DNA of 64,000 bases from Nitrospirota bacterium. Its GTDB lineage: Bacteria; Nitrospirota; Nitrospiria; Nitrospirales; Nitrospiraceae. This document shows, in pieces, positions 46,279 to 52,964 of the stretch. Below the pieces are notes generated by a model. It searched no databases, was not told the DNA's origin, and saw nothing but the letters and a program-made list of their open reading frames with translations. Both the position numbers and the translations under genes were made by a program. Position 1 is the stretch's first letter, and each line of letters opens with the position of its first letter. The stretch spans positions 186,001-250,000 of the forward strand of contig JAUSMA010000014.1 of the NCBI GenBank assembly GCA_030645475.1. The letters run 5' to 3'.

Positions 46279-46938
46279 CTAGTCGGAGTGTTGCTTGAGG
46301 AACATGGCGGCGGCTTGCGTGCGGCTGGTGACTTGCAGTTTATCAAAGATGTTGGAGAGATAACTTTTGATGGTCTTGTCGCTCAGACCGAGAGCGACGG
46401 CAATTTCCTTGTTGGTCTTACCGTCGGCCACCAAGGGCAAGATCCGTCGCTCTTGAGGAGACAACATTACATTTTGGCCATTGGCGTCCATCGTCGAAAG
46501 GGATCGCATACGAGCGAGGACAGACTCAGTCACGGCGGGATCGAGAATGGACTGCCCGCCGGCTATGGCGTGAATGGCCTGAACCAATGCCGCCCCTCCG
46601 ATCGTTTTCAAGAGATACCCTTTCGCACCGGCAAACGTGGTCGACAACACCGCATGCTCATCCGCAAACGACGTGAGAAAGACGACATCTGTGCCGGGAC
46701 ATGTCCCCAGAATCTCCCGGCAGGCTTCAATGCCACTGCCGTCAGGCAAGCGGAGGTCCAGCAGGACAATGTCGGGGCGAAGTCGGATCGCCTCGGTGAC
46801 GGCGGAGGCGACGGAATTGGCCTCACCCACAACCTGAACCGTCCCGGCTCTCCGGAACAACGTGTCCAGGCCCATACGGACCACCTCATGGTCGTCCACA
46901 AGGAGCAACCGAATCGGCTTAACTGCTTGCGCTAGCAT
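46279..46938 (-). CDS. NarL/LuxR-family response regulator
   Basis: 219 residues. The ATG at 46938 has GGAGG 6 bases ahead and overlaps the kinase stop by 20 bases. The receiver has DDHE near 15, Asp in VLLDLRLPDGSG and Lys in YLLKTIGG. The C-terminal LuxR helix-turn-helix is LSPQERRILPLVADGKTNKE with LSDKTIKSYLSNIF. Overlap with the HisKA_3-type kinase gene makes them a cognate pair. Confidence 0.93.
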   Translation of the reverse strand: MLAQAVKPIRLLLVDDHEVVRMGLDTLFRRAGTVQVVGEANSVASAVTEAIRLRPDIVLLDLRLPDGSGIEACREILGTCPGTDVVFLTSFADEHAVLSTTFAGAKGYLLKTIGGAALVQAIHAIAGGQSILDPAVTESVLARMRSLSTMDANGQNVMLSPQERRILPLVADGKTNKEIAVALGLSDKTIKSYLSNIFDKLQVTSRTQAAAMFLKQHSD

Positions 46939-49900
46939 GCTGATCCTCCAGCGGGAGTTCGACGAGAATCTGAGCCCCCGATCCAGGCTTTGAGATGATC
47001 TGAAAATTCGCGCCAAGCTTGTGCGCTCGCGCAGCCATATTCTGCAATCCGTGCCCCTGTCCGGAAGCCTCCTCAAGATTGAAGCCGATACCGTCGTCGC
47101 TGACCTCAAGACGGATGCGCCCTTCTTCCATCTGCAGGGAGACGTGACCGCTTCGGCTCTTTGAGTGGCGAAGGCTGTTGCTCATCGCCTCTTGCACAAT
47201 GTGAAGAATATGAAACGCGCCCAACGGAGTCAACCGCCGAGCGGCTTCCACCGCGAGATGGAGTGAAAAACGGATCCCCTGCATACTCTCCATGGTCACC
47301 GCCAGCTCGGCCAACTTCGCACAGAACTGTTGCCCGCTCACCTCTTCATGCTTGTCCCACACGATATACATCCGAACATCTGAAATAACCCTGTTTAAGC
47401 AACCGACGGCATGCTCCAGCTTCTTGTCGGCCGCCCGACGGTCTTCTTGAACGAGATAGCGACATTCCTCAAGACTCATGCCAATCGCATAGATGGTTTG
47501 AATGATGTTGTCGTGGAGGTCCTGGGAAAGCTGCTCCCGCTCTTCGAGCACTTTGCGAAGCTGTTCTTCGCTCTTTCGCAATGCCTCTACCGCCTGTTTG
47601 CGATCAGTGATGTCTTGAGTCGTACCGATCGAGCGAGTTGGGCGGCCATCCGGCGCATAAAACGTCTCGCATTGCTCGTGAACGAACTTGACCCGCCCGT
47701 CGGACATGAGCAGCCGGTGCTCGATATTATAACAAGTCCTGTTGGCGACCGATTCAGTATAGGACTCGTTGACAAATTGGCGGTCATCAGGGTGCACCAG
47801 CTCAAGGAAAGCCGCATAGGAAGCTCCAAAATGCGCGGAGTCGATCTCGAAGATACAATAATTTTCATCGGACCAAGTGAGTATATTCTCGACCAAGTCC
47901 AGATCCCAGCTTCCAATATGCGCGATGCGCTGCGCTGCATTTAGTCGAGCGTCGTTCTGCTGAAGTGCTTCCTCCGCCTGCTTGCGATCGGTAATGTCCT
48001 CCGAGATGCCCAATAGATATTGTGGCGTACCATCGGTGCCGCAGATTGGGATCTTCTTCGTGTGGAGAAACCGCAATCCATTTCCTCTGGTCTGAATGGG
48101 CTCTTCCGGAATATCCAGCAGACAGCCACTGCGCAGGACTTCCCGATCCTTGGTTATGAAAAAGTCGGCTTCCTCTTTCGGGAAGATGTCGTAGTCGTTT
48201 CTGCCCAAGAGCTCATCCCGGCGATATCCCAACAGCTCTTCCCCCGCCTTATTGAAACGCAAAAAACGAAGATCCTTCGCATCCTTCACGAAAATCATGC
48301 TGGGGAGATTTTCAAGCACGGAGTCGATGAAGATCTTCGAGCGGCGCAAGTTCTCCTCGATCAATTTCTGGTCCGTGATATCGGTCAGGATGCAATGCGT
48401 CCTCAGAAAGTTCCCCCTTGGGTCGCGCTGGACGCGGCCGTTCAGAATGACGGAGATTTCCTTCCCGTCCTTTCTCCTGAGTCTGAGATGCTTAATCTCG
48501 CCGCCGCTTTTCATCAAACTGCCGAATTCGTCCTGGAAAAACTGCCGCAGATCAGGGGACCAGAAGTCGTCGAACGGCTTGCCCAGCAGCTCATCAGGGG
48601 AGTATCCGAGCAATGTGCACAGTCCCTTGTTGGCATCGAGGTACCGCCCCTCGATGTCCAGCGATTGATAGGCGATCGGCACTTCTTCGAACAGGCCCCG
48701 GAAACGTGCTTCGCTTTCCCGCAATGCCTCCTCCGCCTGCTTGCGCTCGGTGATGTCTCTGATGAAACAGTAATGCCCGGACATACCTGACAGATGCCCG
48801 TCAGGCTTGATAATCACAATCTGCTTATAGAAAATCGTTCCGTCTTTCCGCACTCCCCGCAATTCAGTTTCCCCTTTGCCGCAGGTCAGCATCTGCTGAA
48901 ACGCGACGCCGACAGAGACACGATCGTCCGGATGGACCGTCGTCTCCCAGCTTTTCCCCACCAATTCCTCCGGACGGTATCCCGCCATAGCGGCGTACTG
49001 CTCGTTGACGGAAACGTAGTGCCCCTGGTCATCCAGCTTCGAAATCCCTTCGACGGCCAGCTCCACAGCGGCATGTGCTTCCTTCAGCGCCTGCTCCGTC
49101 CGCTTGCGCTCGGTGATATCCAGCATGATACCCCGCAGAATTGCCGGGCCCTGCTCGTCGGTCTCTACCGTCACAACGTCCTGGAGCCACACGGTTCGTC
49201 CATCGGCTGCAATCATCCGGTAATCGAACGAGTATTTGCGTGTGTCCCGTAAAGATACGAGGCAATACTCGATGACCCAGTCTCGATCATCCGGGTGTAT
49301 GTGCGTTTGCCAAAAGTCCGGCTCATCGAGCCAGTGCTGCACGGGATAGCCGAGCACCAATTCGGCCTGGTGGTTGACGAACGAAAACCGCCAGGTCCGC
49401 GCGTTGCACTCCCACACGATCCCCGGAATCGCTTCGATCAAGTCGCGCTGCCATGCTCGGGCGTGGCAAAGGGCGTCGTTCGCCACCAGGAGTTCTTGCG
49501 TTCGCTGAGCCACCCGCTGTTCCAACTCATCGTTCGCCTGCCGCAGCGCCTGTTCCATCTGCTTGCGCTCGGTAATGTCGCGGCCCGCCACGAGGCGGAG
49601 ATCCCGCCCCTTATACCGGCAGGGTTTGACGACGACTTCTCCATAGAATATCGAGCCGTCTTTACGCCGTCCCACGGATTCGTAGGGACCTTGCCCTCCC
49701 TGCCTCATATTGGCGATAACCATCTCGCGGGATTCGTCGGCCACCAGGTCCAGCACATGCTTCCCAATGAGTTCTCCCGGGCCATACCCGAACATCCGTT
49801 CCAAACCTGAACTGGCTTCGATCATGATCCCTTGATCGTGGATGGCGATGCCGTCGAACGTGGCCTCAGTGAGGAGCCGGTAACGCTCCTCGCTCTCGCG

Positions 49901-50617
49901 CAACGCCTCTTCGATCCGTTTGCGTTCGGTGATGTCGCGAGCGGCCGCGTAAAACATCGGCGGCTCCTGTTCCGGAGCCGGAGTAATCCAGCTCAGCCAT
50001 CGATAGGACCCATCAAGGCACCGATATCGATTGTCGAAGTTGATGGCCGGCTCCCCGCGCGACAGCTTCTCCATGACGTCTTGTGTGCGAGAACGGTCAT
50101 CGGGATGAATGAATTCGATAAAGGGTTTCGAGCACAGTTCTTCTCGGCTGAACCCCAGCGCTCGTTCCCATGCCGGATTGAGTCGTTTGAAATAGCCGTC
50201 GGTTTCCGCGATGCAGAGAAGGTCCATGGAGAGGTCGAAAAACTTGTCCCGTTCTTGATTTGCCTCACGAGACTCTCGTGTGGCATGGGCTGCACGTTCG
50301 CCTGCCCAGCCTGCCATCAAACCAAGCGCGAGACCCGCGAGCAGGGCCGGCCACCGTCCAATCACAACCTCCCACCCGATCTTCCCCACTAGCGTGAAGT
50401 TCATGATATTCAGCGTACTCCCGAGCAGTCCGGCAACAAGGCCAGCACGAGACCCCAACAGCCATCCTGCCACGGCCACCGGGATTACGGTGAATACAGC
50501 CACACCATCACCCGCCAGCTGATGCAGGGACGCAAATGCCAGCTCATAGGCCGTCGCCGTTCCGAGAACAATCGTGATGGGCACCCACCGAGGCTGACGC
50601 TTCAGTATCTGTGTCAT
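46919..50617 (-). CDS. membrane sensor histidine kinase with seven PAS domains (NarX/DegS-type)
   Basis: 1232 residues from the ATG at 50617; an ATG at 50677 is possible. Three to four N-terminal membrane helices (about 10-100) in a KdpD/MASE-like module precede seven PAS repeats, many with HPDDR and ITERK ends. The transmitter is HisKA_3 type, His in LSQDLHDNIIQTIYAIG, with ATPase motifs EAMSNSLRHS and DDGIGFN. The PAS array suggests integration of several redox, ligand or protein signals. HisKA_3 kinases work with NarL-type regulators, matching the overlapping gene. Confidence 0.93.
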   Translation of the reverse strand: MTQILKRQPRWVPITIVLGTATAYELAFASLHQLAGDGVAVFTVIPVAVAGWLLGSRAGLVAGLLGSTLNIMNFTLVGKIGWEVVIGRWPALLAGLALGLMAGWAGERAAHATRESREANQERDKFFDLSMDLLCIAETDGYFKRLNPAWERALGFSREELCSKPFIEFIHPDDRSRTQDVMEKLSRGEPAINFDNRYRCLDGSYRWLSWITPAPEQEPPMFYAAARDITERKRIEEALRESEERYRLLTEATFDGIAIHDQGIMIEASSGLERMFGYGPGELIGKHVLDLVADESREMVIANMRQGGQGPYESVGRRKDGSIFYGEVVVKPCRYKGRDLRLVAGRDITERKQMEQALRQANDELEQRVAQRTQELLVANDALCHARAWQRDLIEAIPGIVWECNARTWRFSFVNHQAELVLGYPVQHWLDEPDFWQTHIHPDDRDWVIEYCLVSLRDTRKYSFDYRMIAADGRTVWLQDVVTVETDEQGPAILRGIMLDITERKRTEQALKEAHAAVELAVEGISKLDDQGHYVSVNEQYAAMAGYRPEELVGKSWETTVHPDDRVSVGVAFQQMLTCGKGETELRGVRKDGTIFYKQIVIIKPDGHLSGMSGHYCFIRDITERKQAEEALRESEARFRGLFEEVPIAYQSLDIEGRYLDANKGLCTLLGYSPDELLGKPFDDFWSPDLRQFFQDEFGSLMKSGGEIKHLRLRRKDGKEISVILNGRVQRDPRGNFLRTHCILTDITDQKLIEENLRRSKIFIDSVLENLPSMIFVKDAKDLRFLRFNKAGEELLGYRRDELLGRNDYDIFPKEEADFFITKDREVLRSGCLLDIPEEPIQTRGNGLRFLHTKKIPICGTDGTPQYLLGISEDITDRKQAEEALQQNDARLNAAQRIAHIGSWDLDLVENILTWSDENYCIFEIDSAHFGASYAAFLELVHPDDRQFVNESYTESVANRTCYNIEHRLLMSDGRVKFVHEQCETFYAPDGRPTRSIGTTQDITDRKQAVEALRKSEEQLRKVLEEREQLSQDLHDNIIQTIYAIGMSLEECRYLVQEDRRAADKKLEHAVGCLNRVISDVRMYIVWDKHEEVSGQQFCAKLAELAVTMESMQGIRFSLHLAVEAARRLTPLGAFHILHIVQEAMSNSLRHSKSRSGHVSLQMEEGRIRLEVSDDGIGFNLEEASGQGHGLQNMAARAHKLGANFQIISKPGSGAQILVELPLEDQHASASS

Positions 50618-51060
50618 GGGTATGAGATCATGCCTCGCTATAGACCGGTGACCACTTGAGAGAAAGAAGACACGCATCCTGAAGGAAGGGCAAGGACTGA
50701 TGGGCGATTCGGACGGAACTTTCGCATAGAGGATGAGACCCTTCTCCTACCCAGGTCCGAAACATTGTGGATCGCAAGCCACTGAATGACTGGTGGAGGT
50801 ACGTTAATATAGGTATTTTGTCAAGGTGCCCCGTTCTCCATATATGACAGACAGCCTGCTGGGCCTTTCTGGCTCAGAGAGGCCAAATGTGCCGATATCA
50901 TCGGCATTCTTTGCCTGGCAACCGATGTTCAGATTCCACGCAGCAGACAAATTGAGGGACTTTTGAGAGATTCGTCCTCTGTGGTGCGCGGCACGGAAGT
51001 TGAGAGAGCTTTGCCTGGATCGAAGCCTTTACGAGCCATCGTGCAATAACTGAGGATGCG
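50618..51060. other. 443-base divergent spacer between PAS kinase and motor module
   Basis: No gene seen. Contains a perfect inverted repeat (50890-50906) and AT-rich segments around 50800-50825 and 50858 that could hold promoters for either side; no box pair was convincing. Confidence 0.5.
50890..50906. promoter_or_regulatory. perfect inverted repeat, operator or small terminator
   Basis: TGCCGAT, three bases, ATCGGCA. On the plus strand it is followed by TTCTTT, a weak terminator tail; as a symmetrical site 155 bases before the motor gene it could equally be a regulator site. Confidence 0.35.
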
Positions 51061-52290
51061 ATGATCGATACATCCAGTCTGTGGGAATTCTTGAGCCGTG
51101 ATGCCTCCTTCTTCGGAGGGCCCCAAAGCCCGATGTTGAGCTGGCTTGGGTCGTTCGGGATCGTGCTCTTCTTCCTCTGGCAAGTCATGCGGCTACGCAG
51201 GGAAATATCCGGCGCACAGCGTCCGTTTGATCGAGTGCGACCGATGCTGACCACCCTGGCGAATGAGCGTGGAGACTTGGATCGTGAGCGCTTCACGAGT
51301 CGTGCGCTGGTGGGACTCACGGCCCCAGCCGGGCAACCCGCATCAGCGCCCAAACGGATTGACTGCGACGACCTGACCGCCCTTGAAACGGCCATGCAGC
51401 AAGAGCCCATGTTTCGGCAGCCCTGGGGCCAATTCCGCAAAACGCTGATCCTGGAGCATGTCCCCTGGTTCGTGGAACCACGCATTTTCAGCACCCGCCG
51501 CGCAGAAGATATCTTCACGCAGGACACGCTACTGAGCCATCGCGTCAATCTGGCCTTCTACAGCCAACTGCCTTCCCTGGTGACGGGAATCGGCTTGCTG
51601 CTGACGTTCCTCGCCTTGTTTATCGGTCTCAGCAAACTTCACGCGGAGGGGCAAGAGATCGCCGGCATTCAAGGGCTCATCAACGGATTGGCCGGGAAAT
51701 TCCTCACGTCCATCGTCGGACTCATCGCCGCCAATCTCTTCACGCTCATCGAAAAACCGATGGTCTTCCGGCTGATGAACGCACATCATTCGTTCCTCGG
51801 CCTCATCGACAAACTCTTTCCCCGAAAGACCATGGAGCAGATGCTCGAGCAACTCACGCCGATGCATCAGGCGCAGGGAAAAAGCCTGCAGACTGCCGGT
51901 GGAGAACCGAGGGAACGTGTCGGAGGGATGAGCACAGACAGCCTGACGGCTCCTCTTGCTGAGCTGACCTCGGCAGTTCGATCCTTTACAAAATTGAAAC
52001 AAGAGGAGCAGGCAGCCGGACGCCGCATGACGACTGAACTCCCGCGCGTGATCCGTGAAGAATTCACGGCGCCGATGACCGCACTCCACGACTCGATTCA
52101 TGAGCTCACCACGTTGCTCAAGACAATGCACAACCAGCAGACCCAGGCGACGGCGAGATTCGACGATCTCATGAGCCACCTGACGGACAGGCTCAGCCCG
52201 CAGCGAACCGCGACTGGTAGCGGGCGCTCCGAAGGCAGCCGGTTCTGGCCGAAGCGAGCGCTCGTGTCCACGCAAGGGCCCTCCGAATGA
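51061..52290 (+). CDS. MotA/ExbB-type proton channel protein, ZorA-like
   Basis: 409 residues. One membrane helix near 26-44, then a cytoplasmic segment, then two helices (about 165-190 and 213-235) in the MotA/TolQ arrangement (YSQLPSLVTGIGLLLTFLALF and KFLTSIVGLIAANLFTLIEK region). A long helical, partly coiled-coil tail (about 255-385) projects into the cytoplasm, as in ZorA of Zorya phage defence but shorter. The ribosome site GAGG is 5 bases ahead. Its stop overlaps the MotB-like gene (ATGA). Flagellar MotA is unlikely because the domain order is wrong and no flagellar gene is near. Defence role inferred only. Confidence 0.82.
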   Translation: MIDTSSLWEFLSRDASFFGGPQSPMLSWLGSFGIVLFFLWQVMRLRREISGAQRPFDRVRPMLTTLANERGDLDRERFTSRALVGLTAPAGQPASAPKRIDCDDLTALETAMQQEPMFRQPWGQFRKTLILEHVPWFVEPRIFSTRRAEDIFTQDTLLSHRVNLAFYSQLPSLVTGIGLLLTFLALFIGLSKLHAEGQEIAGIQGLINGLAGKFLTSIVGLIAANLFTLIEKPMVFRLMNAHHSFLGLIDKLFPRKTMEQMLEQLTPMHQAQGKSLQTAGGEPRERVGGMSTDSLTAPLAELTSAVRSFTKLKQEEQAAGRRMTTELPRVIREEFTAPMTALHDSIHELTTLLKTMHNQQTQATARFDDLMSHLTDRLSPQRTATGSGRSEGSRFWPKRALVSTQGPSE

Positions 52291-52964
52291 CGCGCACAAC
52301 CGCACAGGGAGCCGGCGCCTCCCATACCACCATCGGCATCACCGATCTCATGACCTCGCTCGCAGTCGTGTTCATCCTGCTCTTCGCCGCACAGATCACC
52401 AAAACCTCCTCCGCCGCACAGTCTGAGCTCCAAGGCAATAGAGAGGACGTGCAGACGGCGCTACAAGACCACATCCAGCGCTTGGGGCTCTCGCTCGATG
52501 CGGACCCCCGCGACCCTCTCGCGCTCCTGATTGTCGTCCCGGAAAACAAGCTGACGTTTGAGTTCGGAAAAAGCACGTTATCCTCGACTGCGGATGAGTT
52601 TCTCGCAGAGGCCCTCCCCTTCTATGTGGGGGCCTTGTGCGGGCCACTGCGTGACAAGATCGACTCGCTCGCCATCGAAGGCCATACCGATGATCACGGC
52701 AGCGATGCCTTGAATCTCAAGTTGAGTCAGGAGCGCTCGCTGGCTGTCATGGTGAAGGGGATGGAGATCATTCAGACCAAAGAGCCATCAGCCTATCAAT
52801 GTTTTCAAGAAATCACGTCGGCGACCGGACGCGGCAGACAAGACCTGATCTATGATGCGGCGGCAATCGTCAATCGCGAGAAAAGCCGCCGGGTGATTTT
52901 CAAGATTCGACTTCGTTCTGCCGAACAGCGGCATCATCTAGAGCGTCCAACCAAGGCGCTGTGA
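52287..52964 (+). CDS. MotB/OmpA-domain stator protein, ZorB-like
   Basis: 225 residues. Short cytoplasmic start, then one membrane helix (about 21-36) led by Asp20 in GITDLMTSLAVVF, the position of the proton-binding Asp of MotB, ExbD and ZorB. The C-terminal OmpA-like peptidoglycan-binding domain has IEGHTDDHGSDALNLKLSQE and a following ERSLAVMV helix. Translationally coupled to the ZorA-like gene, so the two should form a wall-anchored, ion-driven motor. No ZorC, ZorD or ZorE follows; the next gene is an unrelated transporter on the other strand. Confidence 0.85.
   Translation: MTRTTAQGAGASHTTIGITDLMTSLAVVFILLFAAQITKTSSAAQSELQGNREDVQTALQDHIQRLGLSLDADPRDPLALLIVVPENKLTFEFGKSTLSSTADEFLAEALPFYVGALCGPLRDKIDSLAIEGHTDDHGSDALNLKLSQERSLAVMVKGMEIIQTKEPSAYQCFQEITSATGRGRQDLIYDAAAIVNREKSRRVIFKIRLRSAEQRHHLERPTKAL

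What the first reader, a model, noticed from the sequence alone, without database searches (positions are those of the whole stretch)
51061..52964. Orphan ZorAB-like motor module without known Zorya effectors
Two translationally coupled genes encode a MotA-type channel with a long helical cytoplasmic tail and a MotB-type partner with the proton-binding Asp20 and an OmpA peptidoglycan domain. This is the Zorya sensing/motor pair, but no ZorC, ZorD or ZorE gene follows and no flagellar or Tol/Exb genes are near. It may be a minimal two-gene system, one using a distant effector, or a motor for another purpose.
Basis: partly seen in the sequence, partly recalled or inferred. Interest (0 to 1): 0.65.

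Follow-up and report, generated by a model that had tools for sequence, protein, structure and literature searches.

The report
Effector-less ZorAB-type motor of Nitrospirales
Nitrite-oxidising Nitrospira and their relatives carry, as a stable two-gene unit, a cell-wall-anchored ion-driven motor of the kind used by the Zorya phage-defence system, but without its DNA-attacking partners and with its own short tail and conserved tip, so it probably does another job that is still unknown.

Summary
ORFs 51061-52290 (A, 409 aa) and 52287-52964 (B, 225 aa) overlap by 4 bp. Profiles and AlphaFold models place them with ZorA/ZorB, not TolQR, ExbBD or MotAB; the ion-path Asp20, the Thr182/Ser217 ring and the peptidoglycan-binding residues are kept. 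No zorC, zorD, zorE or zorF/G lies nearby, and zorC/zorE proper are absent from the genome, which has its own MotA/TolQ/ExbB-type genes elsewhere.

The pair is not a broken Zorya. It recurs in Nitrospirales as a two-gene unit (16/16, 37/40 and 8/10 sampled genomes of three genera), in ordinary chromosomal settings that differ by lineage, usually closed by a convergent gene. It was not found in viral contigs, and A not in plasmids. The core is under strong purifying selection (dN/dS about 0.05). Two relatives carry a complete Zorya I in addition.

The motors form one clade (UFBoot 98) near type I ZorAB. Unlike the Zorya proteins compared, A has a short tail (about 150 aa after TM3) ending in a conserved Trp/basic motif (68/73 against 0/10). 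I read it as a ZorAB-derived peptidoglycan-anchored motor acting on an unlinked cytoplasmic partner, more likely housekeeping than phage defence. Partner and function are unproven.

The parts
51061..52290 (+). Gene A: ZorA-like motor subunit, 409 aa
   Evidence: PADLOC ZorA1 4.3e-23; NCBIfam antiphage_ZorA_2 9e-19 (below curated cut-off); fold match 8vvn_C ZorA Z 14.1
52287..52964 (+). Gene B: ZorB-like subunit, 225 aa, one membrane helix plus OmpA-type domain; overlaps A by 4 bp
   Evidence: PADLOC ZorB1 1.5e-39; Pfam OmpA 3.9e-8; Foldseek best matches 8vvn/8vvi ZorB
51445..51492 (+). A residues 129-144: pair of short strands in the cytoplasmic domain, as in Zorya-type A subunits
   Evidence: DSSP on model, strands 129-132 and 141-144; beta-sheet described as Zorya-specific in PMC12505986
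51604..51606 (+). A Thr182, TM2 polar-ring residue
   Evidence: Invariant in 67/67 homologues; aligns with Thr of 8vvn and 8qyy ZorA
51709..51711 (+). A Ser217, TM3 polar-ring residue
   Evidence: Invariant in 67/67 homologues
51859..52206 (+). A residues 267-382: low-confidence linker then tail helices 291-318 and 326-382
   Evidence: AlphaFold model; dN/dS 0.2-0.37 here against about 0.05 in the core
52240..52257 (+). A residues 394-399 RFWPKR: conserved C-terminal Trp/basic tip motif
   Evidence: Trp with at least 2 basic residues near it in the last 40 aa in 68/73 orphan A, 0/10 Zorya-type ZorA; synonymous sites vary while residues are fixed
52344..52346 (+). B Asp20, ion-carrying Asp (ZorB D24 type I / D21 type II)
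   Evidence: Invariant in 54/54 homologues; aligns with ZorB Asp in 8vvn/8vvi/8qyd
52548..52913 (+). B residues 88-209: periplasmic OmpA/ZorB peptidoglycan-binding domain with H133, D135, L146, R150, R201 and a conserved Cys118/Cys172 pair
   Evidence: Model pLDDT mostly over 84; Asp135, Leu146, Arg150, Arg201 and both Cys invariant, His133 in 48/54

Best explanation
A and B encode a ZorAB-family 5:2 ion-driven motor that stands alone as a two-gene operon in Nitrospirales. Shown by sequence: motor-core residues, peptidoglycan-binding residues, a short tail with a conserved Trp/basic tip, one clade, a stable chromosomal setting, purifying selection and no Zorya effector. Inferred: five A subunits surround two B helices; B's periplasmic domains hold peptidoglycan; ion flow past B Asp20 and the A Thr182/Ser217 ring turns A, and the short tail presents up to five copies of the tip motif to a cytoplasmic partner encoded elsewhere. 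The likeliest role is a non-immune one, coupling cell-wall state or membrane ion gradient to that partner. The motor was probably taken over from, or shares an ancestor with, a type I-like Zorya.
For: Family. Strict two-gene unit: the next identifiable gene is convergent in 48 of 67 loci, 35 of them within 110 bp, and no same-strand partner recurs across clades. Near-core: 16/16, 37/40 and 8/10 genomes of three genera. A absent from plasmids and viral contigs. ZorC in 1 of 61 genomes, namely one that has a complete Zorya I besides the pair; ZorE only as a generic HNH hit. A second MAG also has both (L129 and L133). AB and RpoB trees share 14 of 21 splits (shuffled-label expectation about 0.3 in the 25-taxon run). 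One clade, UFBoot 98, with no effector-bearing Zorya inside. Tip motif specific to this clade and conserved at protein level. Separate MotA/TolQ/ExbB-type genes in the same genome.
Against: No partner was identified and no functional data exist. Some genus members lack the pair with an otherwise conserved gene order, so it is dispensable, as defence genes often are. AB and RpoB trees conflict at one deep node and one within the marine group, so at least one ancient transfer is possible. The A model has low confidence in the tail. The tip motif was defined after looking at the sequences.
Confidence: 0.55

Rival explanations
1. It is a phage-defence sensor. The pair senses envelope damage at phage entry and recruits an unlinked nuclease, or acts alone by letting ions leak.
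For: Closest characterised proteins are ZorAB. Peptidoglycan-binding and ion-path residues needed for Zorya defence (PMC11890865) are kept. Patchy presence in part of the genus with clean empty sites.
Against: ZorAB alone gave no protection in published tests (PMC11890865; PMC8565338 states that ZorAB are not sufficient). No ZorC/E in this genome; the ZorD hit is a SNF2 helicase match of a kind also seen in most control genomes. Near-core in two genera, not found on plasmids or viral contigs, coexists with complete Zorya. Tail much shorter than in most Zorya.
Confidence: 0.3
2. It is a decayed remnant of a Zorya system that lost its effectors.
For: The larger clade includes an effector-bearing Zorya, L133.
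Against: Intact frames, dN/dS about 0.05 in the core and about 0.1 in B, invariant functional residues, and a clade-specific conserved tip.
Confidence: 0.03
3. It is a TolQR/ExbBD or flagellar stator variant serving transport or motility.
For: Same superfamily; TolQ also matches by fold, more weakly (Z 11.1).
Against: PF01618 11.5 bits against a cut-off of 22.9. ZorA matches stand first in every profile and fold search. B has an OmpA domain, unlike ExbD/TolR. Neighbours are not transport or motility genes as a rule, and separate MotA/TolQ/ExbB-type genes exist.
Confidence: 0.04

Closest known systems
Type I Zorya motor ZorA1B1 (PDB 8QYD, 8VVN)
   Same: Three-helix A subunit with cytoplasmic strand pair, Asp in the B helix, Thr/Ser ring, OmpA-type peptidoglycan-binding domain, A-B gene order
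   Different: No ZorC/ZorD; tail about 150 aa instead of about 460 aa; conserved Trp/basic C-terminal tip; Cys118/Cys172 pair in B; near-core chromosomal gene pair instead of a mobile defence cassette
Type II Zorya motor (PDB 8VVI; plasmid examples L137, L138)
   Same: Motor core, PG-binding domain, operon order A-B
   Different: Type II has the HNH nuclease gene zorE directly after zorB; here the next gene is unrelated and usually convergent
Type III Zorya (ZorF/ZorG, PMC8565338)
   Same: ZorAB core with other partners than ZorC/D/E
   Different: No DUF3348/DUF2894 gene was found among the neighbours scanned
TolQR, ExbBD and MotAB 5:2 motors
   Same: Ion-driven 5:2 principle
   Different: Profiles and folds are more distant; no TolA, TonB or flagellar partner; the organism has separate MotA/TolQ/ExbB-type genes

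Membership tests
ZorAB motor superfamily | Sequence and fold closest to ZorA/ZorB | tested here: met
   Best profile and PDB matches are ZorA/ZorB
ZorAB motor superfamily | NCBIfam curated score cut-off for ZorA | tested here: not met
   67.8 bits against 100 for NF033915: related, but not a member by that standard
ZorAB motor superfamily | Asp in B helix and Thr/Ser ring in A | tested here: met
   Invariant Asp20, Thr182, Ser217
ZorAB motor superfamily | Peptidoglycan-binding residues of ZorB | tested here: met
   Asp135, Leu146, Arg150, Arg201 invariant and His133 in 48/54 homologues, compared with H186, L199, R203, R254 of ZorB I (PMC11890865); R259 seems to fall on Lys206. Binding itself not tested
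ZorAB motor superfamily | Cytoplasmic strand pair in A | tested here: met
   Strands 129-132 and 141-144 in the model
ZorAB motor superfamily | 5:2 assembly | not testable with these tools
   No complex prediction was available
Zorya defence system | Effector genes zorC+zorD, zorE, or zorF+zorG in the operon | tested here: not met
   Absent next to the pair in the window; no such partner recurs next to the orphan pairs of the clade. In the genome no ZorC and only a 122-aa generic HNH hit for ZorE
Zorya defence system | Long rod-forming ZorA tail | tested here: not met
   About 150 aa after TM3 with an interrupted helical part; A lengths 373-458 aa in the clade against 550-773 aa in most Zorya compared (one type II has 363)
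Zorya defence system | Anti-phage activity | not testable with these tools
   Needs a phage assay
TolQR/ExbBD | PF01618 over cut-off in A | tested here: not met
   11.5 bits against 22.9
Flagellar stator MotAB | Four-helix membrane domain with torque-generating interface in A | tested here: not met
   Three membrane helices in the model; PomA/MotA matches weaker, Z under 7

The most novel reading that the evidence does not exclude
A ZorAB-type motor was taken over by a whole bacterial order for a non-immune cell function. It would be a further functional class of 5:2 ion-driven motor that acts on its own cytoplasmic partner through a short tail with a Trp/basic tip.
Probability: 0.45. Interest if true: 0.75.

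Novelty: new variant of a known kind. Interest (0 to 1): 0.55.

Why it matters
Zorya motors are known only as parts of phage defence, and how ion flow is turned into a cytoplasmic output is open. A natural ZorAB without effectors, kept for a long evolutionary time and carrying a short conserved tip instead of a long rod, gives a minimal system in which the output side can be looked for directly (what binds the tip). It also warns that ZorA/ZorB hits alone should not be counted as defence systems.

Tried and rejected
A shared third gene: rejected; same-strand next genes are few and clade-limited (an indoleamine dioxygenase family protein, a 157-aa ORF without Pfam match). The histidine kinase upstream as a conserved partner: the window's kinase matches only its close relatives over the last 230 residues, not the PAS proteins upstream of A in other families. 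ZorD in the genome: only the SNF2 helicase part matches, as in most control genomes. Weak own-genome hits to A (L002, L003): short, near-chance scores, one with stops inside; dropped. First RpoB tree was wrong because minus-strand loci were not turned; redone. Transfer by plasmid or phage: A not found in plasmids, no relative confirmed in viral contigs; B hits on plasmids were 7 distant matches at 25-26% identity, two of three annotated ones next to an HNH zorE. TM3 Thr216 before the ring Ser, as in the Na+-bound Shewanella ZorA, might hint at Na+ use; not pursued.

Full report
What is there. Gene A (51061-52290, 409 aa) and gene B (52287-52964, 225 aa) share an ATGA overlap. The next gene downstream, an EamA transporter on the other strand, begins 58 bp after B; upstream, a PAS histidine kinase points away, 384 bp off. 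There is no room for a third gene of usual size in the unit.

Family. A matches ZorA models (PADLOC ZorA1 4.3e-23, NCBIfam ZorA_2 9e-19 but below its curated cut-off) and not PF01618 (11.5 bits against 22.9); B matches ZorB (1.5e-39) and Pfam OmpA. In the PDB the nearest sequences and folds are ZorA and ZorB. For A, VIA-align gives 8vvn_C Z 14.1, rmsd 2.5 over 204 residues, with TolQ at Z 11.1 and PomA at 6.8. The A model has modest confidence (mean pLDDT 64.6); the B model is good (84.7). Asp20, Asp135, Leu146, Arg150 and Arg201 of B and Thr182/Ser217 of A are invariant in the homologues aligned; His133 is kept in 48 of 54. In published work the matching Asp, the peptidoglycan-binding residues and the ZorA tail are needed for Zorya defence, and the pair alone did not protect (PMC11890865).

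Distribution. In a phylum sample, 69 of 295 genomes match; by genus 16/16 (g17), 37/40 (g6), 8/10 (own genus g1), five genomes in a second family, and almost none elsewhere; two matches sit in long frames (632 and 639 aa) and may be Zorya ZorA. A scan of one genome per species gave 80 loci, nearly all Nitrospirales, including Nitrospira defluvii. Related pairs also occur in a Rokubacteriota and a Bdellovibrionales record. None was confirmed in viral contigs and A was not found in plasmids.

Setting. Neighbours differ by lineage and are ordinary genes: SucC/SucD-type CoA ligase subunits, an FAD-binding oxidoreductase, a B12-binding radical SAM protein, a tetrahydropterin synthase family protein, an FGE-sulfatase domain protein, an alcohol dehydrogenase. 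The next identifiable gene after B is convergent in 48 of 67 loci. In two relatives that lack the pair, the flanking order is otherwise kept and no trace of A or B remains. So the unit is dispensable and comes or goes cleanly.

Relation to Zorya. A complete Zorya I (A-B-C-D) lies elsewhere in one genus member (L053) and in one MAG that also has the orphan pair (L133). ZorC is absent from the other 60 genomes searched. A tree of the motor core with Zorya of types I and II puts the Nitrospirales and Rokubacteriota pairs in one clade (UFBoot 98), next to L133, the Bdellovibrionales pair and the Bryobacteraceae operon, apart from the five other type I Zorya used. AB and RpoB trees agree on 14 of 21 splits, with two supported conflicts; the deep one suggests an ancient transfer or uneven rates.

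Selection and tail. dN/dS is about 0.05-0.1 in the A core, about 0.1 in B and 0.2-0.37 in the tail. After a weakly conserved linker, A ends in a Trp with basic residues: RFWPKR in this genus, LRWFANWRQ in the N. defluvii group, SWPRWPR or similar in others. 68 of 73 orphan A proteins have it within the last 40 residues, 0 of 10 Zorya-type ZorA; Trp is 0.3% of the tail body and 3.6% of the last 40 residues. Synonymous sites there vary while the residues are fixed, so selection acts on the protein. The count is not phylogenetically independent and the motif was defined after the fact.

Reading. The anatomy is that of a peptidoglycan-anchored ion-driven motor with a short output arm ending in a docking-like motif. 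Stable, near-core, effector-less inheritance speaks for a function other than Zorya defence; a defence role with an unlinked effector is not excluded. Membership: it belongs to the ZorAB superfamily by profile and fold, though below NCBI's cut-off, and it is not a Zorya system by gene content.

Limits. No complex model, no expression or phage data, low confidence for the tail, and no partner found. The searches used for absence cover one genome per species and the collections named.

Noticed in passing
L053 (9108-17454) and L133 (1718-9146): Complete type I Zorya operons (zorA, zorB, zorC, zorD) in two Nitrospira genomes that also carry the orphan pair.
   Followed up: yes
L134 1346-5352: Bryobacteraceae operon-like run: short ZorA-like (285 aa), ZorB-like, a 425-aa protein without Pfam or PADLOC match, and a glycosyltransferase; possibly a Zorya variant with other partners.
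   Followed up: partly
window 52638-52640 and 52800-52802: B Cys118 and Cys172 are invariant in all 54 aligned homologues, including L133 and L134, but absent as a pair from the four other Zorya ZorB read (L053, L137, L138, L140); perhaps a periplasmic disulfide.
   Followed up: partly
window 46919-50677; L070, L072, L080, L132 upstream of A: Different PAS-family proteins are divergently placed just upstream of A in three families; probably chance, as such proteins are common here, but not explained.
   Followed up: partly
L108, L109, L112, L115 upstream of A: In one subclade an MltC-type lytic transglycosylase gene precedes the pair by about 0.1 to 1.1 kb on the same strand; a possible cell-wall link that was not pursued.
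   Followed up: no
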